From: Sternotherus odoratus | Taxonomy: Eukaryota > Chordata > Testudines > Kinosternidae | Direction: 5' to 3' | Assembly (NCBI GenBank): GCA_032164245.1 | Contig: JAVMKO010000006.1 | Location: 104,673,310 to 104,737,309, forward strand | DNA length: 64,000 bases | In this document: positions 27,806 through 58,640 of the stretch, piece by piece | Position numbering within the stretch: position 1 is the first letter of the stretch | How the letters are laid out: every line of letters begins with the position of its first letter | Position numbers and translations under genes: made by a program | Notes under the pieces: model-generated | The model's input: the letters and a program-made list of their open reading frames with translations, nothing else | Database searches by the model: none | What the model was told of the DNA's origin: nothing

Positions 27806-29578
27806 TCATGGAAACAGCTTAGGTTTCTTTTGTACAGTCTGAAGCCAGTTTTGACCTGGCACTGAGATTGCCCCTTTAAAAGCTTCCTCTAAACTTTCCA
27901 ATGCCTGCTCTTGCATTATATTATCCCAGTCCCCGGGCAGATCGGCTGGTTTAGTACCGTACTCTCTGGCAAACTGTTGGTTGAACTCCTTGAAAACAAA
28001 CTTCCAATAGCTGGAAGTTTTGTTGCTGGAATCTCCTGGAGAACGACAGCACAAGACATTGTTATCTTCACAAAAACAACGGCGGTAACCTATGTGCACG
28101 TGGGAATCCTTGATAAGCCATCCAGAATAGCAGGGAGAATAGTCAAGTTTTGGGCCATGTTCCAAACAGGGTAAGAAGCCTCTCTTGGGTTTCATTAGCC
28201 CCTGAGGCCGGTGGACTGATGCAAAATGCATTTTGTGATCGGTGCCTTCCGCTTCACAGGGGACTTTACAGAACGGACAGCACTTCCCACAGCCAAACAC
28301 GCGCTTAAAGATCTCCTCCTGGGGCTTCAGCGGCAGGATGGAGAGTTTAGACTCAATATCCAGGTCTTTAAACTGGGATAAGATTGTTTGCTCAAGTTCA
28401 GGTAGAAAGACTTGAACAGCAGCGGGAAACTGGTTTGGGTTTGTCGTGCTACTAAGCTGCATTCTGGCTAAGCTGTCCCTGGCCATTACAAGATCCCTTT
28501 GCAAATATTTGAAAAAGCTGCCTAAAGAGTCAGTCTGAGTCTTGGAGTTCTCCAGAGCATCCCTGATTTTCTTTATTACGGTGGACAGAAGCTCTCGCTC
28601 GAAATCTTCCACGCCCCTAGTCTCTTTGTAGTGATCCAACAGGTGTGTCCATATCCAAGTTTTGGCAAACTCTTCGTAGTTATTAAGATATTTCACATAG
28701 CCACCAAAGTTCATCTCTTCCAAGAGTCTGCTCAGCATCCAAAACTGGAAGAAGCTCCGATTGCCATAGCCAATGGCTTGCGCACTGTTGCGAAAATTGC
28801 CCATTATTTTTATCCCAAGCATCCTCTGAACATAATCCACCAGGGCAGGCCTCAGACACTCCTCACAGAATACCCTGATCTCCTTTAGAAAGAGGTCCCT
28901 TGCCGAGGAAAGGTTTCCTTTTCTGCAGGGTTCCAACAGACCGTCCGCTTTCCCTTTCATTGTTTTCATGTTCGTGGCTTGGATCTGATGGTTCCATCTC
29001 TCTGGGCTGCTTTGACTGTCAAGGGCTTCTTCACACTTTCTGAACCAATACCGTCGGAGTTCTTTCCTCAGGCCGTTGGTGCTCCTGATGAAATCTTCCC
29101 TGTATGTCCCGGTCAGAAGCACATTCGCAGCTCCACTTTCAATGTATGTTTCCAAACAATCCAAGAGCCTCCGTTCTTCCTGCCGCAGTTTCTGCCAAGT
29201 TTTATGTTTTAGCCTCCTTAAAGCCACGTGATCGAGTTCAGCTTGAGGCTGATTCTGGATAAAAGTTTCATGCTCAGACACCCAAAGATGCATCTCCTTG
29301 CGGAAAGCCCATTCCCATTCCGAATACTTTGTGAACAGCTGGTTATAAGTGTGAGCCACAAAGCTATTTCTCAAGCTGAAGGTAGAATTTGAATGTTTTA
29401 TAGCATTCCACAAGCTCCTTACCCATTCGTTAAACTGGGGGATGTCCTTAAGGGGTTTATTAGATGAGGATCTTCTCATGAATTCAAACAGGTATTTCTT
29501 TAGCTCAAACACTCTCTCACTGTATCCCATGTTCACTGGAGCCATGGGAGGGACTCCATGCCACAAGCCGGGGATGTA

Positions 29579-29581
29579 TCA
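29579..29581 (-). other. in-frame TGA, second stop in gene A
   Basis: The minus-strand context is AAA CAC AAA TGA TAC ATC CCC. Gene B has TGG (Trp) before TACATCCC. The frame continues without shift into WHGVPPMAPVNMGYSE. Confidence 0.88.
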
Positions 29582-30853
29582 TTTGTGTTTCTCTGCATCA
29601 TTATATATAATACCAGGAAATTTCATTTCCCTGATTCCTTTTCCTGTACAAGCTGAGGCTATGGTTGTTTCATCCAGCGGCTCCAGGAGCTGATACCTGT
29701 CTCCTGTGTTTTGTTCATGTGTGGACACATCACCGACTTTCTGATGCACAAATTGGCAGTTTGGATGTTGCCTGATTTTCTTCATTTTCAGAAGTGTATC
29801 TAGCATAATTTTCAGAACACTCTTCGTGTCAGCGGCGTTCTCCGTGGCCATGTTAACGACGGTTATGTCACTCAGTCCAATCACCAGTGTGGCCAGCTCA
29901 TTGTCACGTTGATAATTGCCCTCCAGCTTGGCCAGTCCAGGGGCTTTCAAGCCTTCTGTGTCTATCACCAGGATGAAATCACAGCCCAGTTCCCGCTGAA
30001 AGTTCTCTGCCACTTTAATGAGTGTCATGAAGGCTCCTCGCGTACATCGGCCGCTGCTCACTGCAAACTGCAGGCCAAACATGGTGTTGAGGAGGGTGGA
30101 TTTCCCTGTGCTCTTCCCTCCCAGCACTGTTAGAACCAGCATTCTGGACCTTCCCCCCAGCTTGGCATGGAGCTCAGACAGAACATCTGTCACCCACTGC
30201 AGTGGGATGTTGGATACGTCTCCATCGATCAGTTCTAGAGGAAACCCTTCCAGCATCAGCTCAGCTGCTATGCCTGGGAGATGGATGAGTTGCCTTTGGG
30301 TTTTTAGCTTTTTTCCTTCCTTCACCATTGCCCAGTCAGCTTCATAAAACTGCCCCAACCCACGCATGAAATGCTCCACCCCTAAGGAACTGGAGGAAAT
30401 TGGTTCATGCAGCTCTGCCGTATGCTGGGGATCATTGCCTCTAGCATGACATTGCTCCTTACAGTCCGCCTGCAGGCTGCAGAGATTGCCCTGAGCAATA
30501 TGACCCAGATGGTATTTCATCCACTTTAGGAAGTAGTGTGTTTCCACTTGAGAGAGTTTTCCTAGCCCCGTAATAAACTTGACCATCCCATCAGGAAGCT
30601 CACATTTATCCTGTAAGTCCAACCGTTCCTCTCTTTGCTGAGATGCCTGGAACCCAGGGGCATTGTCCCCTTGTGGTTGCATTCGGCACAGCCCTTTCTC
30701 CACCTTGGCCAACGTTTTGCACCAATCCCCTGGGAGTCTCAACGTTTCCCTCTTGTACTTTGCCACATCTTTTATTTCCGCTGTGATTCCTGCCACCCGT
30801 TTGCTCGCCCTTTGGCATTCCTCACACTCCTCGTCCACCTGGACACCCAGTTC

Positions 30854-30856
30854 TCA
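30854..30856 (-). other. in-frame TGA, first stop in gene A
   Basis: On the minus strand the context is GCG ACA GCA TGA GAA CTG GGT. Gene B reads ACA GCG CGT GAA at the same place (TARELG). A CGA to TGA change at a CpG is the simplest cause. Confidence 0.88.
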
Positions 30857-32059
30857 TGCTGTCGCAGCCATGTCTGCTACGGAGGTTCTCTTGAGAGAGG
30901 AGGCCTCCATTAGGCTTCCAATGGTCAACTGCAGCTTCTCCACAAACTGAGCCTGATTTAGGGTGTTCTGTCTCAGCAGCACACGTAGTTTGTCTAGTTT
31001 CAGCACCGACTCTAATTTATAAAGGAATCCCCAGGTCTCTGTGGGTTTCTCCATCTCGCAGTTAAAGATGAAGTGGTATTTAGTGGCTGATCCCTGCAGA
31101 GATGATAAAAGCATGTATTGTTTCTCACTGATGCTATCAGTAATTATGAACACTGCTGAGGAGACCTCTGTTAAAAAACTGAACTGCAGCCAGTGGGACT
31201 CAATGTCTCCCCGCAGGTTTGTAATCGCGATGGGCTCTGGGAAAAGATTGGAATTCTCCCTCCCACCAGGGAAATACCAGGAAATCTCAACCAGCCCATC
31301 TGTGATTTCTCGAGGGACATTCCCAGACTCCATGTCCCGATGGATGAAGAAATCGTGGTGCTGCTGAGAGGGGCTGAGAACCTCATTGAGGAGTCTGGAC
31401 TTGGAGAAGCTGCAGCTCCCCAGCCGCACAAAGGAAATGGTTGGCATTGACGTGAGCACCAGGCTCTCCTCCCTGAACCCTCTGCTCTGTGCCAGGGAGT
31501 GCGGCCTCCACTTCCTCACAATGTCCCTCATGGCCCACAGCATCAGGGTGCACTTGGGGGTGTCGAGGGCGGGTAGCAGCAGCGGGAGGGCAAACTGGCA
31601 CATGGACATTTTGGACAGGATCTCCTGCTGCAGGAAACTGTCTGAGCAAAGCAGAACAGCACAGAGAACATCCAGGGGGTGCAGAGAATTTCTACTGTCT
31701 ATGTTACTCAGAGAAATACTATTGGAATCAATATGTACTTCCTGCTCCTCATTGGTCTCTTGATCATCAGTTGCCACCTGCACAAGCCTTGTGTTTCTGG
31801 CTGTCCCATTCAGAGCCATGATTTTCCTCAGGAAATGCCACGGTAAATCCCCTAATGTCATAGGAGGCCAGGTCTTTCTGCTCTCTGGGCTGATCTCCTG
31901 GAGATCTCTCAGTCTGAGTTGCCTGCTTCTGTATTGCTCCAGGTTCAACTTCTCCAGAACTCCCTGTGTGGCTCGTCTTCTCTCTGCAGGAAAAAAAAAA
32001 GAACATGACATTGACTCATGTTGAGCCTCCTCCAACTTTAACTGTGCCCATCTCCAGAT

Positions 32060-32255
32060 GTCCACCCCTGCAAGTTTAACTCTGACCCCTTACACCTTCA
32101 CACCACCCATCCCCAACCTTAACTCTGCCCCTTTACCCATACACACCCTCCTCTAACCTTAACTCTGCCCCCTTATGCCACCATCCTCTGTCTTTAACTC
32201 TGCCCCTTTACTCACATTCACCCACCTCTAACCCTAACTCTGCCCTGTTACCCTT
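32060..32255 (-). repeat. intronic tandem repeat upstream of the gene A giant exon
   Basis: About five imperfect copies of taactctgcccctttaccc-type words with ctctaaccttaactctgccc, spaced roughly 40-50 bp apart. They lie in the intron just before the giant exon acceptor. Confidence 0.7.
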
Positions 32256-32389
32256 GCTATCATCCCCCAATACTAAGGGTCCCCCTTTCACCATGCCCCA
32301 TCTTGCTCTCAACTACAAGTCACAGACTCTTCTTCCCTGCCACCCTTGACGTAATGGCCTAAACATTGTATTCACCCCGTTCTCTCTGG

Positions 32390-32560
32390 CTGACTGCCAG
32401 AATCTGGGATTGGACAACAGGGGATGGATCATTCGATAATTGCCCCTTTCTGTTTATTCCCTCTTTAAAGTATCTGGTATTGGCCAGTGTTGGAAGAGAC
32501 TGGGCTAGATGGACCATTGGGTTGACCCACTTTGGTCCTTCTTATGTTGCAAGCTGGAAC
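32390..32560 (+). mobile_element. CR1-related LINE tail
   Basis: Contains gtattggccagtgttggaag, tgggctagatggaccattgg and gacccactttggtccttctt. This is the forward end of the same repeat seen reversed at 50.6 kb. Confidence 0.7.
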
Positions 32561-32766
32561 CCAGACTGCCCCTTCACTCCCATGTTAGTACCATGGGGTG
32601 AGTTCAGGTTACTTCATTGTACAGCTAAATCTCATCACAGGAGTCTTGAATGTCCTTCACGTGGCAGCTAATGGGGCTCTCTCCCGGGAGTGGCGTACGG
32701 AGGACACAGTTCCATTTCTTTCCTGGACTATATCCCTTGCAGAGACAAGCTTGTAAGAGCAAATAC

Positions 32767-32898
32767 CTTGGGAAATGTCTCTCTCCTCCGGTTCTGGGTA
32801 TCCTTGAGCCTCTGCTTCCTGCTCTGGATTCAAATCAGCTTCTTCCCCCAGCTCTGGCGCTTGTGGAGTGTCTGAGTTCTGCTTCCGTCTTAAAGTGT
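32767..32898 (-). CDS. gene A linker exon 2 (acidic, phase 1-1)
   Basis: The exon is 132 bp, with acceptor ttttccttgctag and donor cccaag/gtattt, phase 1 at both ends. The translation has DTLRRKQNSDTPQAPELGEE and a Glu/Pro-rich remainder ending ERDISQG. It matches in position, phase and style the 72-bp linker exon of gene B. It is probably a flexible spacer between the PYRIN domain and the GTPase body. No enzymatic motif is present. Confidence 0.75.
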
Positions 32899-32949
32899 CT
32901 AGCAAGGAAAACAAGAGGAAGCACAAATGAATGGAGCTCAGTCACTGAC

Positions 32950-33009
32950 CTGCTCCAGCCCTTTCCCCAAAGGTCTCCGGCATCTCTAACTCCTGCAGCC
33001 CGGAACAAT
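32950..33009 (-). CDS. gene A linker exon 1 (phase 1-1)
   Basis: The exon is 60 bp, bounded by acceptor ttccttgtttgcag and donor gcag/gtcagt, phase 1 at both ends. It reads DCSGLQELEMPETFGERAGA. It was too short for routine detection and is supported only by splice signals, phase fit and the open frame. Joined PYRIN exon + this + exon 2 + giant exon gives 4650 bp, an exact multiple of three. Confidence 0.6.
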
Positions 33010-33214
33010 CTGCAAACAAGGAAAGATTGGTTTAAAGTGCTCAGTCTGGGGCAGTCAGAAATGAGCTGGTTGTGGGTCTCGCTACATAAACGCTTGGGGT
33101 GTGTTTCTTAGCATAAAGGGGCATTTGTGATGCTTTTTCAAAAAGAAGAAGAAAGCACACAGGATGATTTTTAATTGATCTTACCCAGAATCTCTGTTTC
33201 TATCTCCCCGTGCG

Positions 33215-33900
33215 TGGTTAGTGGGGGGGTGTGGAGTCAGTGTGTATGAGTGTGGTCAGTGTGTGGGTTTAAAGTCAGAGTCGGTCAGTGTGTGTAGGCA
33301 GGCAATGTGTGTCAATGCAATCTGTGTGTGTATATATGTGCAGGTGTGTGGGTGTATGTATGTGCAGGGGTGTGTGTTTGGGGTGGTGTATATATGTGCA
33401 GATATATGTGCAGTTGTGTGTACATGTAGTCAGTGCATGTGTGTACGTGCAGTGTTTATGCACAACCAGTATCTGCATGTCCAATATGTATATGTATGCA
33501 GTGCATGTATGTATGCAGTGTATGCATATATGTGATCAGTGCACACTTGTATGCGTACAGTCTTGTATACATTGTGACTAGTGTGTGTCTGTGTTCAGTC
33601 AGTGTGTGTGTGCGTGTGTGTGCAGTCAATGTGAGAGTGCAGTCAGTATCTCTGCTGTGAATGTGCAGGTTAGTGTGTGTGGTCTGTGTGGGTGTACACA
33701 CTCAGTGTGGGTGTACATAGTGTAGGTGTACAGAGTCCATGTCATTACACACGCACCTTTGAGTGTGTGCAGTCAATGTGAGAGTGCAGTCAGTATCCCT
33801 GCCGTGAATGTGCAGGTTAGTGTGTGTGGTCTGTGTGGGCGTACATATTATAGGTGTACAGAGTCCATGTCATTACACACACACATTTGAGTGTGTGCAG
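33215..33900. repeat. TG-rich degenerate microsatellite region
   Basis: Long imperfect (TG)n-type sequence on plus. It includes a duplicated block of about 85 bp (cagtcaatgtgagagtgcag at about 33623 and again at about 33770). It lies in the gene A intron between the PYRIN exon and linker exon 1. Cys/Val-rich open frames here are artefacts. Confidence 0.85.
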
Positions 33901-34397
33901 ACTATGTGAGAAACATTAAAAGGAAACAACCACCTGTGAACTCTAGTGTATTTCAGAAAAAGAGTGAGAAAGGGTTTCAGACTCCATCCCCCCACTGCTG
34001 TTCAGACACCCTCCCTGCTCCCTGCCTGAGAGCGGGATCTGCTCTCTCCCTCCCCACGTGCTGCTCCCCCCCGGAATACAGATCTGCTCCCTCCCTCCCC
34101 TCACCTGCTGGCCCTTCATTTTCAGTTTGTACCAATTTTCACACATTTTTAATTTTTTTGAATAAGTGGATAAATTCCTGGGATATTTTAAACAAAATTA
34201 CAACAACAAAAAAATAAATAAAAGAAAAAAATGAGGGGCTTTGGCAATATTATAGCAGTGGTTTTGGGGGGTCCCTGCAAATGAACTATATGTGCAAAAC
34301 GTAGCAGTGGGATGGCTAATTGCGTGATCTGTGGGTGCAATATTTTTGATCCTGCTGAAATACACCAAGGCTGAGGCCTAACTGACAATTTTGACTT

Positions 34398-34682
34398 GGG
34401 CCTGGGCTACACTGGGCGGGGGGTGTGGGTGTGGGTGTGTTTCGAACTATGATACACAACTTCAGCTATGCTATTTGCATAGCTGAAGTTGAAATATCTT
34501 AGTTCGACTTACCTGGCCGCCCTCATGGCGGCTCCCCCGTCAACTCGCTTACTCCTCCTGCAGAGGTGGAGTACAGCCGTCAATTTGGGGATTGATTTAT
34601 CGGGTCTAGACGAGAAGCGATAAATCGATCCCCGATACATCGAACACTACCCGCCGATCCAGCGGTTAGTGTAGACATACCC
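34398..34682. mobile_element. miniature DNA transposon with an internal palindrome
   Basis: The right end gtgtagacatacccttgg and left end gggcctgggctacactgg are loosely inverted, as in the common reptile elements ending GGGTATGTCTACACT. Inside is a perfect 14-bp inverted repeat with a 5-nt loop (34458-34471 and 34477-34490). Confidence 0.65.
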
Positions 34683-34689
34683 TTGGAGA

Positions 34690-34860
34690 GACAAGGCGGG
34701 TGAGGTAATGTCTTTTATTGGAACCATTTCTTTTGGTGAGAGAGACAGGCTTTTGGGCCGTACAGAACTCTTCTTCAGGAATGACCCAACCCACCTTGTC
34801 TCTCTAATATCCTGGGACCACCATGGCTACAACTACACTGCACGCAGTGTAGGTCAACAC
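34690..34860 (-). mobile_element. PLE-like tail with degraded hammerhead boxes, reverse orientation
   Basis: Words gtaatgtcttttattggaac, ggtgagagagacaggctttt and cttcttcaggaatgac recur widely in reptile genomes. In reverse complement there is CTGAAGA followed about 17 nt later by CAAAAGCC where a functional hammerhead would have GAAAGC. The core therefore looks mutated. The family assignment is tentative. Confidence 0.4.
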
Positions 34861-34884
34861 ATTTCACATTCTGGACTCAGAGAT

Positions 34885-35158
34885 GGCAGATGACAGAACA
34901 AGGAGTAATCATCTCAAGTTGCCGTGGGGGAGGTCTAGGTTGGAGATTAGGAAACACTATTTCACTAGGAGGGTGGTGAAGCATTGGAATGGGTTACCTA
35001 GAGAGGTGGTAGAATCTCCTTCCTTAGAGGTTTGTAAAGCTTGGCTTGACAAAGTCCTGGCTGGGATGATTTAGTTGGGGATTGGTCCTGCTCTGAGCAG
35101 GGGATTGGACTAGAGACCTCCTGAGGTCTCTTCCAACCCTGATATTCTAGGATTCTAC
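34885..35158 (+). mobile_element. CR1 LINE 3' end
   Basis: Contains the C-terminal coding remnant KHWNGLPREVVESPSLEVCK (34960-35045), then attggtcctgctctgagcag and ctcttccaaccctgatattc. It ends taggattctacagt. Confidence 0.9.
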
Positions 35159-35449
35159 AGTGGTCTTACGTGACACATCCAGGTTCCCATCTGTCTGCAG
35201 CGCTCCATTGTTGCTGGGAGCTAGGGCCAAAGATCTCAAGGCATCAGTGATTCCGGCCTTTCAAGTGCTTCCAGCCAGGGACTCTTTCTAGCTGGGCTCA
35301 GGCACCTAGGTAACAGGGAGCAGCTGCTGATCACGGAATGGAAGAGTCACTAGAGAGGGAACAGATGTATTAGTCCACCGAGCCTCTCCCCACCTCAGCC
35401 ACTTGCAGGAGGGGCAGGTCGGATCTGCTCTCTCTGACTTATGCCTTAC
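35159..35449. other. start of the gene A first intron, nothing else seen
   Basis: Sequence immediately inside the PYRIN exon donor on the minus strand. No repeat or gene was recognised. Confidence 0.5.
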
Positions 35450-35729
35450 CTGCTGAAGACTCGGTGAGTCTCTCTTCCAGGCTTCTCTGGTTGATGTCTC
35501 TCAGCACCTGCACAGTCACCTCCACCCCGTAGCGCTCCCCATAGTGATTGATCAGTAGGTCAGTAACATCCACACAATCTCCTTTCTCCAGCCGGCCCCA
35601 GGGGATGGCTTTATACCCCTCCTCCAGCCGGATCGCTCGCAGCTTGTGCTTGAATCTCTTGAGCTCATGCTCCCCCAGCTCTTCCAGGGTCTCCAGCAGG
35701 ATGGAGATATTGCTGCCTGTCTTCTCCAT
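35450..35729 (-). CDS. gene A first coding exon: PYRIN domain
   Basis: ATG at 35729 and donor gcag/gtaagg, phase 1 out, 280 bp. The protein begins MEKTGSNISILLETLEELGE and contains ELKRFKHKLRAI, GYKAIPWGRLEKG and DVTDLLINHYGERYG. This is a complete six-helix PYRIN (DAPIN) domain of about 90 residues. PYRIN domains bind other PYRIN domains, classically the inflammasome adaptor ASC. The phase fits the linker exons and the giant GTPase exon downstream. The fused product would be a PYRIN-GVIN protein, but the giant exon has two stops, so a full-length product is doubtful. A short PYRIN-only product from this exon remains possible. Confidence 0.82.
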
Positions 35730-35815
35730 AGCACCACCTCAGACAGGGCCCTAAGCAAACTGCGGGGCCATCCCGGAGAAAGAGAGAACCAGGAAGTAGC
35801 TTCTGCTTCGGCAGA

Positions 35816-35829
35816 CTAAAATTGAAACT
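35816..35829 (-). promoter_or_regulatory. ISRE-like site upstream of gene A
   Basis: The minus strand reads AGTTTCAATTTTAG, one base off the ISRE core AGTTTCnnTTTC at the second TTTC. It lies 87 bp upstream of the PYRIN start codon. No TATA box is obvious between them. Confidence 0.5.
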
Positions 35830-36867
35830 AAAATCTTGGTGAGTTCAGCACAGCCTTCCCATTGAACTTCCTGAACGCGAAGGACATTATACAGGGCTAG
35901 GCACGTCACTTACCTGCAGATCCTTCAAGCAACCACTTAACAGCTCTGCCCATCTCTTTTAATCCACACTCCTGATTTTTGGGGACGTGACTCATGATTC
36001 TTTAATGCCTAGAGTTAGTAATAGCAGACAGGACATTTCTGGGACTTCTTTTTAGAAAACATTTGACCTGATGTTTAAAGTGGTCCTTAAACATTTAGGT
36101 TATGTCTTGTAGCCTGAGTAGACACACCGAAGCTAGCTTTGATCTCGCTAGCTGAGATACCAGCAGCAGCACAGGTTTCAGTGTGGGCTAGCCAGGTGGG
36201 CAATTATCCAGGGCCCCATACAGGCTTGTACAGTCCATGCTGAAGTCCATCTCGCTCTGTCTTCACTGCTGTCGGCAGGTGAAGTAGCAGACTAAAGCTA
36301 GCTCAGGTATGTCAGACTGCAGTGTAGATCTACTCTTAGATCCAGATTCACACTGCGTGTGAATAAACATTAAAGGGAAACTATCCATTTTAAATCCATC
36401 CATTTCAAAAAATGAGCAAGGAGTGGTCTCAGATGCTGTGTCTAGGTCAACGTCTGCCATTTTGTTACCAGATTTTTTCTATTTTTCAAAACTGTTTTTC
36501 GTTTCTCCCCTGCTGCATGAAAAATCCTGACAGACAAGAGGGCAGATTGACTACAGTGAAACAATGAAACGGACGCAGTACAAAATAGGGGCAAAAGCAC
36601 ACAGGAAATCAACGGGGGGAAAAATGGTGCCCAAAGACCATTTCCTCTTCAGTTGCTCTGAGTGACTGGGCGATTGATCTCTGCTTGTTTCTTTCAAGAA
36701 GGGCAGGTACAGTGTTCGCAGGCAGGGTGTCAGTTGAAAGATGAAAGTGTCCCTTAAGTTTACAGGGCTGCATCTCCAAAAGTTCGGCATCCCGTGCTGT
36801 AAATGATCTAGTCTCCTTCCAGCACCCTGCAGTGAGATCCCTGTTCTCTCCCTGGCTCGTTCCTTAC
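35830..36867. other. intergenic between the two PYRIN exons
   Basis: AT-moderate sequence with no further exon recognised. The part next to 36868 would be the intron of the broken PYRIN copy. Confidence 0.5.
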
Positions 36868-37134
36868 CAGCTCTTCTGAGTCTCTGTGCCAGGTCTCTCT
36901 GGTTGATGTCTCTCAGCACCTGCGCAGTCACCTCCACCCCGTAGCACTCTCCATAGTGACTGATCAGCAGGTTCCTAACATCAGCAGGGTCCCCCTTCTC
37001 CAGCCAGCCCTAGGAGATGTCTTTGTACCCCTCCTCCAGCTGGCTGCTGGCAGCATGTGCTTGAATCTCTTGAAATCGCCCTCCCCAAGATCATCCAGGA
37101 CCTGTAGCAGGAGATCTTTCCCTGTCTTCTCCAT
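36868..37134 (-). pseudogene. broken PYRIN-domain exon
   Basis: Starts ATG GAG AAG ACA GGG at 37134 and ends at the preserved donor gctg/gtaagg. It aligns throughout with the gene A PYRIN exon (FKRFKHMLPA, then in another frame LEEGYKDIS, then DVRNLLISHYGECYGVEVTA). It is 13 bp shorter than the intact exon, so the frame is lost, and an in-frame TAG follows at 37012-37010. No GTPase exon was found for it nearby except the fragment that lies upstream at 39 kb. Confidence 0.82.
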
Positions 37135-38160: not shown

Positions 38161-38169
38161 GACCTCACT

Positions 38170-38450: not shown

Positions 38451-38454
38451 GCTT

Positions 38455-38576: not shown

Positions 38577-38814
38577 CTCTGCTCTGACAGACTATATCCA
38601 TTGTCTTGCTGGAAGAAGGAACAGAACCCAGGAGTCCTGAGCTACAGCCTTTGATTGCTAATAGTTGCATATTACCAATAGCAGTGTCATGTTGCCATCT
38701 AGTGGCTGGTCCGTACCACAGAGAACACCTTCCTCTTTAGTTCAGGTGGTAAATGGATGCCTGTCGTGGGCAGCGGATGATGGAGGATTCAAGTCCTGGT
38801 TCTGACCCATGCAG

Positions 38815-39080
38815 AGGGAGGGAAAACTGGCAGATGGACATTTTGGACAAGATCTCCTGCTGTAAGAAACTGTCGGAGCAAAGCAGAACGGCACAGAGAA
38901 GAGCGAGGGGGTGCAGAGAAACTCTGGCTTCTGTGTCTCTATGCCAAGCTATCCCGTCAGTCACTAATTCCTGTATCATCTGAAGCCCATAGCAAATGGC
39001 TTGTTCTTCTGGCCACCCCAATCAAAGCCATGGCTTTTCTCTGGAATTGCCAAGGAAGACTGCCTAACATCTCAATGGGC
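38815..39080 (-). pseudogene. fragment of a GVIN giant exon
   Basis: In minus-strand frames the segment reads [14 protein letters not shown] near 39050. It then gives [20 protein letters not shown] and [12 protein letters not shown], matching the N-terminal part of the giant exons of genes A and B. It contains a stop and frame changes and ends abruptly. Its order relative to the broken PYRIN exon at 37.1 kb is not that of a gene (GTPase piece upstream of PYRIN), so the two may belong to different dead copies. Confidence 0.78.
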
Positions 39081-43640: not shown

Positions 43641-43643
43641 AAG

Positions 43644-49984: not shown

Positions 49985-51257
49985 CTAGAAAATATGAACA
50001 TAAATTTCAGAGCCAAAAATACAGGGCTGAATTATCTTTATTTGCAAAGGCCATTTCTGCTACCTAGGTGGTGGAAAATAGCCCAAGAGAACCTGTGTAG
50101 AAATTTTTCTGAGTAGGAGAACTCTCAACTTGTTTAAAGTTGGCAGAAGTGGCTCCCGTCCTGCCCCAAGTCCCTAGCACAATATAAGTGGTGTTGTGGA
50201 GTGGAGAGGTACTGTATCTGATCCTCCCCTGGCATGATGTTTGTTACAGACTCTGATCAGTGGCATAAACTAGCATAGGCCCCAGGCTGCTCTAACTTTC
50301 ATAGGTTCTGGGATGCTGAGGATCAGGGAGATGTAACCAGCTCCTTGGACTGGCCACCCCTCACTACGTTTGAGTAGTGGGACGCAGTGGAGAATCAGGG
50401 TCGTTGTGATTTTTGTGATACTATTTGGCAATTGTCGATTGTGACAATAAGGTAGTGATGAAAAGCTATAATTAGAGGATGGCAATACATAGAAGTGACA
50501 GATACACCAAGGAGTTACACGTCTCATGCACTTCAATAATTATTTAAATTGCTCGCCACAGGACTTTGTTACCTCTTAAATTGCTCTGTATTCTTAGTTT
50601 CCCCTCCATTAGTATAAGAACATAAGAATGACCATGCTGGGTCAGACCAAAGGTCCATCAAGCCCAGTATCCTGTCTACCGACAGTGGCCAATGTCAGGT
50701 GCCCTGGAGTGAGTGAACCTCACAGGTAATGATCAAGGTATCTCTCTCCTGCCATCCATCACCCCCTTCTGACAAATAGAGGCTAGGGACACCATTCCTT
50801 ACCCATCTTGGCTAATAGCCATTAATGGACTTAACCTCCATGTATGTTGCTGTTAACAGTCAATGATGGACACTAGTGTAGATGTGATCTCTTCTTTGGA
50901 GAGGTGGGGGTCATAATACCACTCAAGTTAGGCCTTCTCACAGCTCATTGCTATATCCAGCTGCCTTTGTGCCTTCTAGTCTGATAATATGTACAGTGTG
51001 TTACTAGCATATCTATCCTGTCTAGAGATTTATACAGTACCCCTCACGGTGGTATCTGAGGACTCCTGCATCTGCTGCATCATTAATCCTGGGTTTTTAA
51101 ATGGAGATGTTCTAAACTACTAAGGATTAGATAATATAATCAATACAGAAACACCAAGCATGAAAGTAGTCAAAGCCATCATAAATCTAATAGTATTTTA
51201 AATTAATGAGATGCAATACTAATAACACATGCCCATGGAAAATTATATGAGGACTAC
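49985..51257 (-). other. gene B intron before the giant exon
   Basis: Runs from the linker exon donor to the acceptor ttttctag. It contains a reversed CR1-like repeat at about 50605-50860 and a PLE-tail scrap (ccacaggactttgttacctc) near 50558. Confidence 0.65.
50605..50860 (-). mobile_element. CR1-related LINE tail, reverse orientation
   Basis: Contains ataagaacataagaatgacc, gggtcagaccaaaggtccat and ggctagggacaccattcctt. This is the reverse of the family seen at 32.4 kb. Confidence 0.8.
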
Positions 51258-51329
51258 CTTTGGGAAGGTCTTTTTGCTTCTGTTCTGGGTCTTGCTGAAT
51301 AGCAACTTCTTGTTCCTGATTTAAGGAAT
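51258..51329 (-). CDS. gene B linker exon (phase 1-1)
   Basis: The exon is 72 bp with acceptor tttcttcctag and donor cccaaag/gtagtc. It reads DSLNQEQEVAIQQDPEQKQK then DLPKG. It is phase 1 at both ends, like the two linker exons of gene A, and similarly charged. It connects the CARD exon to the giant GTPase exon. It is short and without a domain; support is from splice sites, phase and homology in position. Confidence 0.75.
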
Positions 51330-53005
51330 CTAGGAAGAAATCCAAAGGAAAATATATTATCACAATTTAATTACTAAGTATCTATATTTACTGATTAGCA
51401 GAAAAAACAACAGCGCTGAATGTCCTGAGTGCAGAGGTTGTCAGTGCAAGGACCATCAGGCATGAAATAAACAATTCCATCAACACTCTACTAGAAGGGG
51501 AAAGGTGGAAAGGTGATCTGGGAATTCCCTCTTTTGTCAGACTTAAATTTGGCTGCATAAAACCCTTGTTTGTTTGTTTGTTTTGCTCACAGTAATTTAG
51601 AAATGAGGCTGAAAGCAGCCTTTTTAAACTCTTAATTTTAATGTGTGTCAGAGTTCTCGCTTTGATTGGACTAAAGAGAACATTACTCCAAAATTTGGAC
51701 TTGAAAGGTTCATGAATGTTGGCTCTATTTCCAGTTGCAGTTCAGCTGACTTGCCTCCTCTAACACTGACCTAATACTGTTATACTGAATTGTACAGAAA
51801 CTGAACTTTAGGAAATAGTCTTGTAGGACTTGCAAAGATGAGTTAACTGAAAATCTGAACACACAGTGAGGGAAAGCATGCTAGGAAGAAAGATGGAAAT
51901 CTACTAATTTCTAAAACTTCTTGTGCTACTACCAGAGAAAATATGATCTTAACCAAAACATTTCACAGATTCAATGCTCAAATTAAACATAAAACAATTA
52001 GTTGGTATTGTTAGGATAATAACCTTAGATTCCCTACAAAGTATGTTCCTGAACTGACATTCAAAGTATGACCATATTGCTAATCATTTTGCTTTGAGTC
52101 ACTACTCTCTCTCAGTGAAAATAACCAGAGAACTACTATAACTGTGAGGGAAATATCACCCTAGCTTTCAAATTCTCAAGTGTTTCCTTTATTTAGCACT
52201 TTGAGTGGAACCTATGACCCTCCTTTTCCCCAATTTAATGTGCCTTCCCAGAGCAAAAAAGTCAATTTGTAAACCCATCTCTGGTTTTGTAAATTTGTAA
52301 ACCCATCTGGTGTTGGGTTATTTTGGTATTGATATCAGAGTGCTTTCTGCCACTGATGCATAAGATTTGGTATAAGTCCTATTAACGGAGTCACGATGCA
52401 TAAATAATTCGACAGTGAAGTGGGAAGACAGTCCCTTTCTCTCTGCAAGGTGCAAAACACTAGTGTACAGGGGATGGAGGCAGTGAGAGGTATGAGATCT
52501 ATACACCCAGAAACTCTCATGAAACTTTCAACAAGGTCTGAGTTGCATATCTGGGATTGAGTTAAAACTGACTGAATGGCAGAGATTATGATGGTCTTCT
52601 CAATTAATTCTCCATCAGAAGATAATGTTGTTGTATATCAAATACATTACCTTTGGGACTATCTACTATCTACACTACAGATATTTACTGAATCTGAATC
52701 CATCTTCTAAATGGTTTATTCCATGTGCAATTCCTATCTACACACAACAGGGTTAATATATAGTTCCTCACTGTGTGGGTTACCTAGCCGGTCTGCTTGT
52801 GAGCTGGGTTGAAAAAACTGACAGAGTGTAGCCAGGAGTTAACATTGTTCCTTTGCTGCAAGACATTTACATGAAAACATATATTTCTTAATATCGATCT
52901 CTAATTGGAAATATGGACATATTCAATTTTATGGCTTTCAGATTCTTTTCTTATGAAAAATAAAATATAACTTGCCATAGCTTAAATATAAATCCTGACC
53001 CATAC
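51330..53005 (-). other. gene B intron, no repeat or exon recognised
   Basis: AT-rich sequence between the CARD exon donor and the linker exon acceptor. Short open frames (62 codons or fewer) have no splice support. Confidence 0.55.
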
Positions 53006-53271
53006 CTGGAAATACAATTTCTAAATGCTCTAGAAATTGCTGGCAGGCTGATTCCCCCTTTTTCTCTACCAGAGTCAACAATTTTCTTATTTTATTCTTG
53101 GGATCCTCCTCTGTTTTATCCAAAGTATTGTACTCCTCCTCTGTGACAATGGATTGGGATCTTAATTCACCCAAGATGAGTTCTAGGTCTTTTTGAAGAA
53201 TTTCAGTGAACTTTTTTCTTTTGCTGCGTATAATCTCGGAGGGTTTTTCAACAGCAGATAAATCACAAGTC
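53006..53271 (-). CDS. gene B CARD exon
   Basis: The exon is 266 bp, with acceptor tttttgtcctag (phase 2 in) and donor ttccag/gtatgg (phase 1 out). It reads TCDLSAVEKPSEIIRSKRKK, then LELILGELRSQSIVTEEEYN and KIRKLLTLVEKKGESACQQF, ending LEHLEIVFPG. The spacing of the six helices and the LVEKKGESAC/FLEHLE end identify a CARD of about 88 residues. CARDs pair with CARDs of caspase-1-like proteases and their adaptors. The phase-1 donor joins the linker exon and giant exon without shift. It has no ATG at its own start, so an upstream exon must supply the start. The exon at 56215-56365 fits by phase. Confidence 0.85.
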
Positions 53272-54469
53272 CTAGGACAAAAAAGATTTTTTTTTAAATA
53301 TAAAGAATAAGAAACAGGATTTGTGAAGCAGCCATGGTTAGCTTTAGTGTACTTAGTCTTGTATCATTCTTCAAACATTAGCAGGTAATCTGCAAGTTAA
53401 ATAGTTTGAGATGGAGAATAAACACATTTTCTCCTAAAACGTTGGAGCTGAAAATTGTCACTTCAATTGAAGTTTTCCTCTTCTTCGAGTTTGAAAATAA
53501 ATGTTGACTTTTTTCTCTGAAATCATGAGGAAAACTTTTTACTTTTCTTCCACTTTTGTCCAATTGGATTTTTTTTTTAAAAAAATTAAGATAAAATAGA
53601 TTTTTTCCCCCACTGAAACAAAGCAAAAGGTTCATGACAAATTTTAAATACTAAAAATCTTCTGTTGTTCTCCCCACCAAGCAACAGGTTCATTTCAAGC
53701 AGCTGATCTTTTGAACAGAATATCTCTGTGTTAGATGCGCTATCTAGTGTTCAAGGCTTGTACTACAACATCAAAACTGCTATAAATTTAATAGCCAATG
53801 ATCCACAGTATAACTATATTTCCTAGATAATCTCTGCTCCAAAGAGCTTTTAGTTTGTTTTTGGGTATTTTACAACACTGAGTGCATATAATGTCAATTG
53901 AAAACAAGTAAGTACTACATTTTGCAGCCTGTCTTTTATATGAACTGTATTCCAAATGCATTACAGTTTTAAATACTGTAATAAAACTATAAAGTTAATA
54001 TAAAGAAAACAGTGAAAGATAGAATTGAAATGTTTGGAAACAAGGGAGAAGAGAGATTTTCAGATAAAGTCTTAAAACAGGTGAAATGTTGAGGAGATGG
54101 AGACTTGCTGGGTGTTCCAGATGGTAGGGACTTGCAGAGAGAGAGGCTTTTGAACCATTATATCGTGATTATGGCTGCTGCTAGATGCACAAAAAGATAT
54201 GGAGGAAGACAGAGGTTTGAAACATATGGATGGTGATTCTGAAATGGAGCTTGAAATAAACAAGGTGCCAGCAGAACTGTCTGGGAATAGGTATAAGTTG
54301 AACATAGATCTGTGGACATTTGAGAAGTCTTCAGGGGCATCAGGCACACTATATGGAGGAGCCCAGGGAGGTGAGATCAGAGGAGGGAACTGCCATTGCC
54401 AAGGCCAATGGAGATGGACATCTAGATGGGAATCTCAACAAAAGGAGGAATCTTAGGGAGGCCATAGAA
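53272..54469 (-). other. gene B intron, AT-rich
   Basis: AT-rich sequence with oligo-A and oligo-T runs. No exon was recognised. Confidence 0.5.
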
Positions 54470-55223
54470 CAGGGGTGGGCCAACTACGGCCCGCGGGCTC
54501 CTCCCAACCGGCCCCTGAGGTCCGGCTGGGGAGGCTGCTGCGGCCCCTCCCTAGCTCTCTCCCTCCCCTGCAGCCTCTGTGGGTCTCACGCAGCAGCTCT
54601 GGGGGGCGCGGCTGTGCAACCTTGTGGCCGGCTGGGGAGGCTGCTCTGGCCTCTCCCCTGTTGTCTCCCTCCCCTGCAGCCTCAGTTCTCAGGGGCAGGG
54701 CTGCATGACCACATGTTTGGCTCTGGGCCAGACAACGCGGTGCGCTCCAGCGTGTCTTACCCCACCACCACTAAGACACGCTATTCTTAGTGGTGGCGGG
54801 GTAAGCGGGATGTGGCGGGGCCAGCCCTGGAGTGTGGGGGTTGGATAAGGGGGCAGAGGGTCTCGGGGGGCAGTGAATGGGGATTTGGGTGGCATGTGGG
54901 AGTCCCAGTGGGCTGTCAGAGGGCGGGGGTGTGGCTAGGGGTCAGGGAGCAGGGGGGTTGAATAGGGGGGTAGGGTCCTGGAGTGTGATTAGGGGATGGG
55001 GGGGGGGTGTCTCTGGAACGGGGCAGTCAGGGGAAAGGAGCAGGGGGCTTAGGGGGTGGGGACTTGGGGGGGTGATTAGAGGTAGGGGGTCTATGGAGGG
55101 GGGCAGTCAGGGGGCAGGAAGTGGGAGGGGGCCGGATTGGGGGGAGGGCCTTCCCTACCTGGCCCTCCATATAATTTTATAAACCTGATGTGGCCCTCGG
55201 GCCAAAAAGTTTGCCCACCCCTG
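54470..55223. mobile_element. hAT-type non-autonomous element, 754 bp
   Basis: Ends CAGGGGTGGGCCAACTACGG and GTTTGCCCACCCCTG form the typical inverted termini. The flanking octamers ccatagaa and tcatagag agree in six of eight bases, as expected for an aged 8-bp duplication. The interior is G-rich (54.8-55.15 kb). It lies in an intron of gene B. Confidence 0.8.
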
Positions 55224-56214
55224 TCATAGAGGGAGTGCCAGTATCCCAGGGGAGAAGAGATGGTGGCCTGCCTGGAACCTTATAGAGCGGGGAGCTGGGA
55301 CTCAGACCAATCATTGTTGAGGAAGCTGCAAAAGTTTAGGCAACAAAAATAAGAGGCTTTGTTCACATGCCTGGCTTAAATCATGGATATGTCATACAAC
55401 TTGGAATGAAGTGAAAACCAGGTTTTGTATGGAGAGGTTTGTTCAGCTGTAATATTGATGCTGATAACTGCCTAGTAAATATTTTACATAGGGCCGCTGG
55501 GGCCACACAAACGTGTTGACTCCTTGGTACTTGTAAAGGAAGCAAAATGGTGTCAAAATAGGATGTAACTTTTGAATCACTGTGGGCCAATTCCTCTGCC
55601 TAGTGCACAGGTCTAGCAAAGGAGCTGTGGTGGTTTGGGCAATGGGAGCATTCTACAGACTGATTCAAGCCACCAGAAGACCCCAGAGTGGCTGCATCCC
55701 TCTGTCTAATGTAGCAGATCTCTGTGGTTATGAATGCACCACCCCTATTTTTATCCACGGAGTACTAATCCATAGCATGTGGGGATTGCCAACCTCCTGT
55801 TGAGTGATCTTACCACATCCTTCTCCTGTACAGTAGAACTACACCTGCTCTGTTGTATGGAGGGCCTTCTATGTCTCTTTCTCAGGTTGGAGGACTTGGC
55901 TGTATAGGAACTTATACACTGGTGGCACTATAATTGGGGCTGACAAAGCACGTAGATTTTCAGCTTCAAATTCTGCTCATTGACACCCTTGTGAATCCAG
56001 AGTAACTTCACTGGCATAACCATGGATTTGATGGAGATCAGAATGGAGATCAGAATCTGGTCCAAAGCACATTGGCATCAGGGGTATTTTTCTGGATTTA
56101 CATAGGGATGACTGAAACCAGAATTCAAGTCTACTGCTGAGATTTTCACTGTAGTGCAGGAAATCTCCAAATAGTCACTAATCACAGCTCATTATCACTT
56201 TTCAGAGACATTAC
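55224..56214 (-). other. gene B intron, nothing recognised
   Basis: No exon, repeat family or RNA gene was seen. Confidence 0.5.
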
Positions 56215-56365
56215 CCTTTCGCTGGTGTTCTTGATGGAGTGGTGCCCTCTGGTTCCTTCTCAATAGTCCTCGCTGCCAATAGGTCACCAGCTGGTGCTGA
56301 CTCCGGCATGTTTTTCTGTCTCCAATGTCTGATAAATTCATTTTGGGATTGTAGGAACAATTGCT
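56215..56365 (-). CDS. probable upstream exon of gene B (phase 1 in, phase 2 out)
   Basis: The exon is 151 bp and open throughout, from acceptor ctttctgcaaccag to donor aaagg/gtaatg. It reads EQLFLQSQNEFIRHWRQKN and then MPESAPAGDLLAART, ending TPSRTPAKG. Its phase-2 donor fits the phase-2 acceptor of the CARD exon at 53271 and gives GTCDLSAVEKP with no shift. Its phase-1 acceptor fits the CARD exon at 58327 or the candidate first exon at 63109. There is no known domain; it looks like a helical and then Ser/Pro-rich linker. It is supported by open frame, splice sites and phase only. Confidence 0.55.
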
Positions 56366-56665
56366 CTGGTTGCAGAAAGTAAGGGGTTACATTTCAGAAA
56401 GACAGTTTATTAATCTTAAAGATTCCTAACATATCCTCACAAAGGCCTTTTAAAACCTACACAAAAATGTATAATCTATGACCTCTCTAAGATCACGTAT
56501 TTGTAACCATCTTGTTGCTTCTAGTCCAACTAACATTAATCAGATGAGAATAGGGCATGAGATGAGTTAGTTACAGCAGATTTATTTATAACAGAAAATA
56601 TGAAATTCACAAGCATGTCCCAGTTGGCAGCTTTACTTGTCATTGTAGGTGTTTGCTAGCCCATA

Positions 56666-56668
<3 letters not shown>

Positions 56669-56706
<38 letters not shown>

Positions 56707-56725
56707 TGTCTGTCTGTCTGTCTGC
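56669..56725. repeat. (TG)n(TCTG)n microsatellite
   Basis: An uninterrupted tgtgtg run followed by tctgtctgtctgtctgtctg. Confidence 0.95.
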
Positions 56726-57038
56726 TGTATCTAATACTGCTGAGTTTCTTTCCTTGATCTAAATTTGTAAGCTTCTATCTGGTAACCATAGTGCTGAATC
56801 TCATTATGTATATATATAATGGTTAAAAAAGGGAATGTGTTGTCACAGACTAAAGGGTTCTAAAGGTTATGCTTTTGGAAAGTCTCTCACCATTGTATCT
56901 GGAGATATAGTGTAATACAATGCAGACAGGGTGGATGACACCTTAAATATTTCTTAAACATGGTATGTACCAACTCTGACTGCCTTATTTTGGCTAAACC
57001 TCATTGATTTCATTGGGAGCTTTGGCAGGGCATAAGGC

Positions 57039-57589
57039 CTAAAGGTTAAATCTCAAAATGTTGAGGATAAATAAATCTTCAGAATTCTCTTTCTCTGAAG
57101 TCAGAGGGACTTCTGGGATCTTTGCTCCTTTCCCTTTCTCCGACGTTGCAGAAGGTTCTAGGAGCTCAGATTCCTTTCCTTTTCCTGAGGATGCAGTAGC
57201 TTCTGGGTTCTCTGCTCTATTTCCTTTCTCTGAGGATGTGTCAGGTTCTGGGCTCTCGGCTCCGTTCCCTTTCTCTGAGGATGTGTCAGGTTCTGGGCTC
57301 TCGGCTCCGTTCCCTTTCTCTGAGGATGTGTCAGGTTCTGGGCTCTCGGCTCCGTTCCCTTTCTCTGAGGATGTGTCGGGTTCTGGGCTCTCCGCTCCAT
57401 TCTCTTTCTCTGAGGATGTGTTGGGTTCTGGGCTCTCGGCTCCATTCTTTTTTTCTGAGGATGTGTCGGGTTCTGGGTTCTCGGGAAGATTCTTTTTCAC
57501 CAACGATACAACCATTTCTTTATCTTCTGGTCCATTCTTTTTCTCTGAAAACACTGCAGCTTCTGGAGTCTCAGTTCCATTATGGGGAT
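57039..57589 (-). CDS. terminal exon of 45-bp coding repeats (acidic Ser/Pro/Glu)
   Basis: After the acceptor ttttttgaatctttag the frame is entered in phase 1 as DPHNGTETPEAAVFSEKK. It then runs through about eight degenerate 15-residue units of the type EPDTSSEKGNGAESP, and stops at TAG (57041-57039). At least four units are nearly identical. No splice donor was found before the stop, so it looks like a last exon. Phase 1 matches the donor of the CARD exon at 58327, so a CARD plus repeat-tail protein of about 300 residues is predicted. The repeat is acidic, disordered and rich in possible phosphorylation sites. Repeat number is likely to vary between individuals. Confidence 0.65.
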
Positions 57590-58326
57590 CTAAAGATTCA
57601 AAAAACAATATCCAATAAAATCCTATTCAGGTTCTTCGGGATTCTTGATATTCTGACATTCTTGACATTAGACTCAAATTTTCCTTCCTTTCAAAATTAC
57701 ACTAGAGTATTTGGAGATAGCACACTTCAGTAGTAACACAAGATAAGTGCAAAGAAGAGATAATATAATATAATTTCTAGAAAGTTCTGATAGTCATGAG
57801 CAGATGAGATGGGATCTACTTTTATATCAAATGAACACGTTGCTTTGATATAGATATATTCTGTAATTATCCACTGGGGTTTTCTTTTAACTGAAAAAAG
57901 TAATTTACTATATGGACCCAGGAGTGAAATCTTTAAAAGAAAGAAACACGGCTTCTACATTGTCCTTTAGGAAAATCTAACAGGATTTATCAAAGGGTTT
58001 TTTAAAAAATTAAAGCATCTGGACTCCCGAGATCAAATTCTGTCTAGGCTACAAGTGAAAATTAGTCTAGTAACCTGATCCCATCCTGCTCTATTGTAAA
58101 AGATAAGACAAAGATATAGTAGATGGAGTGATGAGTACAAAAGGCTGTTCAGAAGATGACTTTCTCTTTTAAATTATACAGGATGATTTAAAAAAATCTA
58201 TAGAAAGGTGTTAGTTCTGTATGAAATTCTAGCAGATTGTTCTTTAAGAGGAGGATCAGTCTTTAGGAATAATCTGAAATATTATTTGATTTTTAAAAAA
58301 TCCATTAGTAAGAAAATTTTACTCAC
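57590..58326 (-). other. intron between the CARD and repeat exons
   Basis: AT-rich, no other exon seen. Confidence 0.55.
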
Positions 58327-58640
58327 CATCTTCTAAATACTTAGAAATTGGTTCTAAGCGTGGAAACATGTGTTGCAGGTTTTCCATACAATCTAGGAAT
58401 TGCTCATGGGCCAATTCTCCCTTTTCGAGTACTGTTTCTATCAGTGTCACTATTAGGTTCTGTGGTTCATTTATTTGAGTCAGTGTGAAGTACTCTCTGT
58501 GTGTAATCAGGAGATGGGCATCTACAGCACTCAAGACAGCCTCTGGATCTGTTTGAAGAACATCTGCTAGTTTTCTTCGGGCCTTTCGTATAACCTCTGA
58601 GGGCTTCTCATTGGCAGCCATTGCTTCCAGATCACAAGAG
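58327..58640 (-). CDS. second CARD exon
   Basis: The exon is 314 bp, with acceptor tttttgatttcag (phase 2 in) and donor gaagatg/gtgagt (phase 1 out), the same phase pattern as the gene B CARD exon. It reads SCDLEAMAANEKPSEVIRKA, then VLSAVDAHLLITHREYFTLT and LIETVLEKGELAHEQFLDCM, ending LEPISKYLEDG. It is a complete CARD with the shared motif CDL-A--KPSE-IR. An internal ATG (MAANEKPSE, G at -3 and +4) could start translation in this exon. It may belong to a short CARD protein ending in the repeat exon, or form a tandem-CARD N-terminus with gene B. Confidence 0.8.

What the first reader, a model, noticed from the sequence alone, without database searches (positions are those of the whole stretch)
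27806..58640. Death-fold-tipped very large GTPases: PYRIN-GVIN beside CARD-GVIN
Two neighbouring minus-strand genes share a giant single-exon GVIN GTPase body but begin with different death-fold domains: PYRIN in gene A, CARD in gene B. Linker exons and giant exons are all phase 1-1, so N-terminal modules could be swapped by exon shuffling without frame damage. This suggests a family in which an interferon-induced giant GTPase is directly coupled to inflammasome-type signalling. The fusion is inferred from genomic exon phases, not from transcripts.
Basis: partly seen in the sequence, partly recalled or inferred. Interest (0 to 1): 0.88.

Follow-up and report, generated by a model that had tools for sequence, protein, structure and literature searches.

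The report
Turtle giant GTPases with death-fold heads
In this turtle, genes for giant antimicrobial GTPases begin with cell-death and inflammation docking domains; one neighbour (tandem CARD) looks usable, the other (PYRIN) is broken here but appears intact in related turtles, which suggests a direct link from a pathogen-coating GTPase to cell-death signalling.

Summary
The core observation holds. On the minus strand a tandem-CARD GVIN gene (B) lies beside a PYRIN GVIN gene (A), and predicted turtle orthologues show the same head-linker-body order. Corrections. (1) Gene A's giant exon has two in-frame TGA stops, and an inverted second copy 2 Mb away (giant exon 98% identical) is broken by different small deletions, so A is probably dead here; at least one other PYRIN-GVIN in this genome has an open giant exon. 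(2) Gene B has two CARDs, a first exon at 63.16 kb, and about 80 bases before its ATG the window's only exact ISRE, plus a TATA-like box. (3) Not all exons are phase 1-1, and the acidic-repeat exon seems to have lost its donor; skipping it keeps frame. (4) Head swapping looks rare: 3 changes among 86 headed proteins on the body tree (29 if 'no head' counts as a state). CARD looks ancestral; PYRIN heads were seen only in turtles. The CARD is ARC/NOL3-like (79 bits; next 30), the PYRIN ASC-like. Coupling to death-fold signalling is well supported, but 'inflammasome' is inference, and the CARD arm may restrain rather than trigger. No paper describing the fusion turned up in my open-access searches.

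The parts
63245..63258 (-). Exact ISRE match (AGTTTCNNTTTCNY), the only exact one in the window; 80 bases lie between it and the gene B start codon; TATA-like TATAAG at 63223-63218 between them
   Evidence: for the sequence
63151..63164 (-). Gene B exon 1, coding MGNG plus two bases; orthologues P0001, P0002 and P0004 begin MGNGSS
   Evidence: donor has A at -1, so inferred
58327..58640 (-). Gene B CARD1 exon (ATG also at 58621); acceptor phase 2, donor phase 1
57077..57589 (-). Acidic 15-residue-repeat exon (45-bp tandem repeat); the joint implied by orthologues reads GAAG|AT, no GT; frame runs on to a stop at 57039-57041
   Evidence: orthologues P0001 and P0002 include it, P0004 does not
56215..56365 (-). 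Gene B linker exon EQLFLQ...PAKG, phase 1 to 2
   Evidence: same junction residues in P0001, P0002, P0004
53006..53271 (-). Gene B CARD2 exon, phase 2 to 1
   Evidence: Pfam CARD 3e-13
51258..51329 (-). Gene B linker exon, phase 1-1
   Evidence: conserved in P0001, P0002, P0003
45267..49984 (-). Gene B giant exon, uninterrupted: URGCP domain, URGCP-type GTPase domain, C-terminal part
38812..39079 (-). Relic of a third GVIN body (start of the URGCP domain, in pieces)
36868..37134 (-). Second PYRIN exon, decayed (frameshift and TAG)
   Evidence: listed with 1 TAG
35450..35729 (-). Gene A PYRIN exon, ATG to phase-1 donor GTAAGG
32767..32898 (-). Gene A linker exon, phase 1-1
   Evidence: conserved in P0121-P0124
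27806..31983 (-). Gene A giant exon with in-frame TGA at 30854-30856 and 29579-29581

Best explanation
These are two members of a tetrapod lineage of GVIN (URGCP-type) giant GTPases in which a death-fold head is fused, through linkers rich in acidic residues, to the large GTPase body. Shown from sequence: the domains, the in-frame exon chains, the same order and junction residues in predicted orthologues, and the two stops in A. Inferred: gene B is an interferon-inducible tandem-CARD GVIN, made here without the acidic-repeat exon (1844 aa), while gene A is an inactivated PYRIN-GVIN. Inferred mechanism: interferon induces the protein; the GTPase body assembles on a pathogen or membrane surface, as human GVIN1 does on bacteria; crowding brings many heads together; the clustered heads then nucleate or capture death-fold partners. 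For the ASC-like PYRIN that partner is probably ASC, giving an inflammasome-like output. For the ARC-like CARD it is a CARD or other death-fold protein whose identity, and whether it is switched on or off, is unknown.
For: Domains. In-frame chains. Relatives of B: Chrysemys P0001 and Chelonia P0002 with both CARDs, Pelusios P0004 with both CARDs and no repeat exon, Pangshura P0003 (model starts before CARD2). Orthologues of A: Lepidochelys, Chrysemys, Emys, Pangshura, Pelodiscus. Same genome: 16 GVIN GTPase domains, a lower bound; PYRIN exons precede 4 of them and CARD exons 3, with single CARD exons about 22 kb upstream of 2 more. ISRE and TATA-like box at B. PYRIN nearest ASC, 68 bits against 35 for NLRP3. 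CARD profile nearest ARC/NOL3, 1.8e-21. Body function: human GVIN1 coats Burkholderia thailandensis (PMC11974893, sections 9 and 11 read). Analogue: zebrafish Gbp4, an interferon-induced GTPase with a CARD, works through Asc (PMC4932187, passages).
Against: No transcript seen; the database proteins are gene predictions and their exon boundaries were not seen. Gene A has two stops, its duplicate has two frame-breaking deletions, and B's repeat exon has apparently lost its donor, so the locus in this animal may be partly decayed. CARD1 is below Pfam's cut-off. The CARD resembles a repressor, not a sensor. The AF2 model of part of the body is poor (mean pLDDT 52), so no structural statement on the GTPase is made. 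winB shows 47 private changes in 1411 comparable sites against 16, 32 and 40 in P0001-P0003 (119 in the deeper Pelusios P0004); winA 73 in 1087 against 36-52 in four relatives, i.e. faster change. CARD and pyrin have 0 occurrences in the main text of the human GVIN1 paper.
Confidence: 0.6

Rival explanations
1. The CARD-headed GVINs are brakes, not triggers. An ARC-type CARD on a clustered GTPase captures caspases, FADD-type or other death-fold proteins and keeps an infected cell alive while the coat works.
For: A profile of 12 GVIN CARDs scores NOL3/ARC at 79 bits, ICEBERG (also an inhibitor by its entry title) next at 30; CARD1 and CARD2 alone also have ARC first. CARD1 is followed by an acidic P/E-rich exon, reminiscent of ARC's C-terminus (recalled).
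Against: Family resemblance of a CARD does not fix its sign; the PDB sample of CARDs is limited. The PYRIN paralogues are ASC-like, pointing the other way for that arm.
Confidence: 0.3
2. The heads are only self-association or targeting modules: they thicken or place the GVIN coat and have no signalling partner.
For: Tandem and triple CARDs (winB, P0001, P0015) and long acidic linkers fit avidity. 46 of 132 rows on the tree show no recognised head, though truncated models contribute.
Against: Death folds commonly bind other death folds (established knowledge); the PYRIN keeps an ASC-like sequence across turtles.
Confidence: 0.2
3. The locus is mostly a graveyard in this animal: A is a pseudogene and B is on the way, so the pair says little about function here.
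For: Two TGA in A; decayed PYRIN2 and GVIN relic; duplicate of A broken differently; lost donor in B; faster private change in both.
Against: B's giant exon, both CARD exons, exon 1 and two linker exons are intact and the promoter elements are present; skipping the damaged exon keeps frame, as in the Pelusios model. A against its duplicate shows dN/dS 0.41 in the giant exon (42.5 nonsynonymous, 28.5 synonymous), so some constraint lasted past the duplication.
Confidence: 0.15
4. Gene-model artefact: the PYRIN and CARD exons belong to separate neighbouring genes.
For: A cluster of PYRIN and CARD exons lies at C6:104.34-104.59 Mb, close to the GVIN array. No transcripts seen.
Against: The same head, linker and body recur in order in predicted orthologues from several turtles, and tandem CARD also in lizards; linker exons keep phase; PYRIN exons sit 5-6 kb before GVIN GTPase domains at three loci and about 4.5 kb before a fourth body.
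Confidence: 0.06

Closest known systems
Human GVIN1 and the GVIN/VLIG family of interferon-inducible giant GTPases
   Same: Same URGCP and URGCP_GTPase body domains by Pfam and by the names of the homologues; giant coding exon, human GVIN1 being intronless (PMC11974893 section 9).
   Different: Human GVIN1 is described with an N-terminal domain of unnamed kind, and CARD and pyrin do not occur in the main text; here the N-terminus is encoded by separate exons for PYRIN or CARDs.
Zebrafish Gbp3/Gbp4 (interferon-induced GTPase plus CARD)
   Same: Interferon-inducible large GTPase joined to a CARD; Gbp4 works through Asc and the caspase-1-like Caspa (PMC4932187, passages).
   Different: Different GTPase family; CARD at the C-terminus; no PYRIN form mentioned in the passages seen.
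ARC/NOL3, apoptosis repressor with CARD
   Same: Closest solved relative of the GVIN CARDs by sequence, and of CARD1 by fold.
   Different: ARC is a short CARD-only protein with an acidic tail (recalled); it has no GTPase.
ASC (PYCARD) and PYD-only proteins
   Same: Closest solved relatives of the GVIN PYRIN: ASC 68 bits, pyrin 58, POP1 57.
   Different: ASC pairs its PYD with a CARD in a small adaptor; here the PYD is joined to a giant GTPase.
Caiap (CARD-ankyrin inflammasome protein)
   Same: A non-NLR protein with an N-terminal CARD that acts in fish inflammasomes and has reptile orthologues (PMC9978379, passages).
   Different: Ankyrin repeats instead of a GTPase.

Membership tests
GVIN / URGCP-type giant GTPase | URGCP (PF25496) and URGCP_GTPase (PF25683) domains | tested here: met
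   B: 416 and 688 bits; A pieces: 376 and 498 bits, against cut-offs 27 and 55
GVIN / URGCP-type giant GTPase | Body in one giant uninterrupted exon | tested here: met
   B: 1579-codon open frame. For A not met, two in-frame TGA
GVIN / URGCP-type giant GTPase | Induced by interferon | not testable with these tools
   Only indirect: exact ISRE and TATA-like box before B exon 1; no exact ISRE near A
PYRIN domain family | Pfam PF02758 above curated cut-off | tested here: met
   99.5 bits against 22.9
CARD family | Pfam PF00619 above curated cut-off, CARD2 | tested here: met
   50 bits against 23.9
CARD family | Same for CARD1 | tested here: inconclusive
Inflammasome sensor | Ligand-driven recruitment of ASC and/or caspase-1 | not testable with these tools
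   Only resemblance of the PYRIN to ASC
ARC/NOL3 family | CARD of the ARC type | tested here: met
   Profile of 12 GVIN CARDs: NOL3 1.8e-21, next ICEBERG 3.6e-6
ARC/NOL3 family | Short CARD-only protein (recalled) | tested here: not met
   CARDs read in frame into a 1572-residue GTPase body; so it is not an ARC
Zebrafish GBP-CARD type | GBP-family GTPase with C-terminal CARD | tested here: not met
   Body is URGCP type and heads are N-terminal

The most novel reading that the evidence does not exclude
GVIN giants are a second, NLR-independent class of tetrapod death-fold platform. A pathogen-coating GTPase carries its own output head, ancestrally an ARC-type CARD that restrains or redirects cell death, replaced in turtles by an ASC-type PYRIN that triggers inflammasomes, so that sister genes read the same coat with opposite outputs; mammals, with human GVIN1 as the example, lack a recognised head.
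Probability: 0.2. Interest if true: 0.88.

Novelty: new variant of a known kind. Interest (0 to 1): 0.62.

Why it matters
Among interferon-inducible GTPases the GVINs were long without a known function; human GVIN1 was only recently shown to coat bacteria, needing unknown co-factors (PMC11974893, sections read). Forms with a built-in CARD or PYRIN suggest what kind of partner the coat talks to, and give a direct test: attach or remove the head and watch ASC specks or caspase activity. The specific match to the ARC CARD also ties a vertebrate apoptosis repressor to an interferon-induced GTPase family.

Tried and rejected
Direct CARD1-to-CARD2 splicing was rejected (phase 1 into phase 2); the exon at 56365-56215 solves it. 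Repeat exon as the end of a short ARC-like protein (CARD1 plus acidic tail, stop at 57039-57041): possible by-product, not needed, since P0001 and P0002 continue. The roughly 190-residue gap in A's body as decay: rejected, it is shared by P0121-P0124 and P0130. Structure of 841 residues of the B body: model too poor to use. PDB search with the whole B body: no match at E 0.01. Third homologue search (salamander N-terminus) returned 5 proteins, all salamander, so CARD-GVIN in fish, birds or mammals was not settled. Gamma-activated site TTCCNGGAA: none in the window. Exact ISREs at other GVIN loci: 1 in 160 kb of fetched stretches against 0.3 expected, not evidence either way. Ten ORFs elsewhere in the window had no Pfam match at E 0.01. 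Heads searched at other GVIN loci and not found: about 10.7 kb upstream of C6:104.7468 and the fetched upstream of C6:104.8137, 7 kb upstream of C6:104.8888. Absence from print rests (open-access library only; listings seen). Of the papers I saw PMC11974893 in outline, abstract, sections 9 and 11 and passages, and PMC4932187 and PMC9978379 in passages only.
Full report
What is there. The window is C6:104673310-104737309 of a 1.76 Gb genome in 218 contigs, a turtle by its nearest relatives. On the minus strand lie two GVIN genes. Gene A: PYRIN exon 35729-35450, linker exon 32898-32767, giant exon 31983-27806, all joined in phase 1. Gene B: exon 1 at 63164-63151, CARD1 exon 58640-58327, acidic-repeat exon 57589-57077, linker exon 56365-56215, CARD2 exon 53271-53006, linker exon 51329-51258, giant exon 49984-45267. 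Pfam finds PYRIN at 99.5 bits, CARD2 at 50, CARD1 at 20.3 (below the 23.9 cut-off), and URGCP plus URGCP_GTPase in both bodies. CARD1 is nevertheless a helical CARD by model (pLDDT 85) with ARC first among solved structures.

Integrity. B's giant exon is open for its whole length. A's has two in-frame TGA codons. At the first, P0121-P0124 and P0130 have arginine and Pelodiscus P0125 has proline; at the second all six have tryptophan. The first stop falls inside the URGCP domain (profile positions 1-274 of 299 precede it), so a truncated product would lack the GTPase. Much of window 1-38.7 kb is repeated in inverted orientation near C6:102.7 Mb, in two blocks that are out of order relative to the window: 102706572-102727787 matches 21408-1, and 102732093-102747999 (the end of what was fetched) matches 38663-24038; the long unique pieces are mostly 97-98% identical. 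The copy of A's giant exon there is 98.25% identical to A, does not have those stops, but carries a 1-base and a 2-base deletion. Both copies therefore seem to have failed separately. Between A and this copy the giant exon has 42.5 nonsynonymous and 28.5 synonymous differences, dN/dS 0.41; the PYRIN exon has 6 and 2, the linker 1 and 0, too few to judge. In B, the joint that orthologues imply at the end of the repeat exon reads GAAG|AT, so the donor appears lost; leaving the exon out keeps frame (1844 aa) and is what the Pelusios model shows.

Is the fusion real? No transcript was available. The case rests on predicted orthologous proteins, whose exon boundaries I did not see. For A: P0121 Lepidochelys, P0122 Chrysemys, P0123 Emys and P0124 Pangshura are full-length matches at 84-85% identity, and P0125 Pelodiscus at 71-74%, each with PYRIN, the same linker and the body. 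For B: P0001 Chrysemys and P0002 Chelonia contain MGNG, CARD1, repeat, linker, CARD2, linker, body; P0004 Pelusios the same without the repeat; P0003 Pangshura starts just before CARD2; lizard relatives P0009 and P0010 also have two CARDs. In the same genome 16 GVIN GTPase domains were found, a lower bound, 11 of them on C6. PYRIN exons lie about 5-6 kb upstream on the same strand of three, and a fourth, not in the list, was found by a local profile about 4.5 kb before its body. The C6:105.82 Mb copy has PYRIN, linker and an uninterrupted 1565-codon giant exon, with 92% PYRIN and 88% body identity to Trachemys P0094. CARD exons precede B, C6:106.02 Mb (8 kb) and C6:104.787 Mb (three CARD exons within about 19 kb), and single ones lie about 22 kb before two more. 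For the remaining 7 of 16 no head was found; for five of these (two on C1, two on C3, one on C195) only the lists were consulted, and the C195 copy belongs to the immunoglobulin-headed clade.

How heads evolved. Of 133 N-termini with a GVIN body (131 database proteins plus the two window genes), local profiles found CARDs in 67 and PYRIN in 15. On a body tree of 132 rows (P0128 dropped for its short body) head type, ignoring the 46 rows without a recognised head, needs 3 changes among 86 rows where 2 is the least possible; with 'no head' counted as a state it needs 29. Among the hits that were listed (120 of 734; 45), CARD occurs in salamanders, a caecilian, tuatara, lizards, crocodilians and turtles, and the 14 database PYRIN-GVINs are from 12 turtle species, going by the names the sources give; one search also returned one fish PYRIN protein without a GVIN body. 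So CARD is probably ancestral, PYRIN a turtle replacement made once or twice, and an immunoglobulin-type ectodomain another. This argues against frequent shuffling, though common phase-1 joints would have permitted it. The tree is a FastTree tree with open forks, its root is only a midpoint, and rows without a head may be truncated models.

What the heads resemble. The PYRIN's nearest solved relatives are ASC (68 bits), pyrin (58), POP1 (57) and NLRP6 (56), with NLRP3 at 35. In the alignment, positions corresponding to human ASC E13, K21, K26, D48, D51 and D54 are kept and R41 is replaced by tryptophan; their role in ASC filaments is recalled, not tested. The CARD result was unexpected: a profile of 12 GVIN CARDs hits ARC/NOL3 at 79 bits and the other CARDs at 30 bits or less.

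Regulation. The only exact ISRE in 64 kb lies 80 bases before B's first ATG, with TATAAG between. Allowing up to one mismatch 9 sites occur against 2.8 expected, reached in 0 of 100 shuffles. In 160 kb of other GVIN stretches there was 1 exact match against 0.3 expected. This supports B's start and interferon control, weakly.

Mechanism. Human GVIN1 forms coats on Burkholderia thailandensis and needs interferon-induced co-factors (PMC11974893, sections 9 and 11). Zebrafish Gbp4, a different interferon-induced GTPase with a CARD, works through Asc (PMC4932187, passages). The simplest reading is that the turtle proteins carry the partner-recruiting head in the same chain: assembly of the body concentrates heads, which seed or capture death-fold proteins. 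The PYRIN arm would favour ASC. The CARD arm might equally be a brake, given its ARC kinship. None of these steps was tested.

Novelty. The proteins are in public databases under names such as 'interferon-induced very large GTPase 1-like' and 'up-regulator of cell proliferation-like', so the architecture is annotated but, as far as I saw, not discussed. Nine literature searches in an open-access library listed no paper describing it; subscription journals were not covered. I rate it a new variant of a known kind: an interferon-inducible GTPase with a built-in death fold.

Noticed in passing
P0098, P0100, P0107, P0108, P0071; own-genome contig C195:109320-110510: A GVIN clade in turtles predicted with immunoglobulin domains before the GVIN body; P0107 has V-set and butyrophilin-like C2-type domains and a transmembrane-like stretch. 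The C195 copy in this genome is closest to that clade.
   Followed up: partly
P0062 (Mauremys mutica): Predicted PYRIN plus RING plus B-box plus GVIN protein, which may be a TRIM-like fusion or a merged gene model.
   Followed up: partly
window 1-38663; C6:102706572-102727787 and 102732093-102747999: Large inverted duplication about 2 Mb away in two blocks that are out of order, mostly 97-98% identical in the long unique pieces; it includes copies of gene A's exons.
   Followed up: partly
C6:104768024, 104775130, 104782339: Three CARD exons before one GVIN gene, whose closest relative is the triple-CARD Mauremys reevesii protein P0015.
   Followed up: partly
C6:104.34-104.59 Mb and C6:95.9-96.3 Mb: Clusters of PYRIN exons (11 and 8 of the 28), the first also with 13 of the 41 CARD hits and ending about 82 kb before the window; a possible source of swapped heads.
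   Followed up: no
C3:2257708-2273585: Two GVIN GTPase domains in unusually long open frames (2430 and 2509 codons), away from the C6 array.
   Followed up: no
window 11400-14460: GC-rich tandem repeats in a stretch with long ORFs in several frames on both strands.
   Followed up: no
P0128, P0132 (Platysternon): GVIN proteins named 'sulfurase' and 'ER membrane protein complex subunit 4' in the source; P0128 joins PYRIN, a partial GVIN and a CARD, probably two merged genes.
   Followed up: partly
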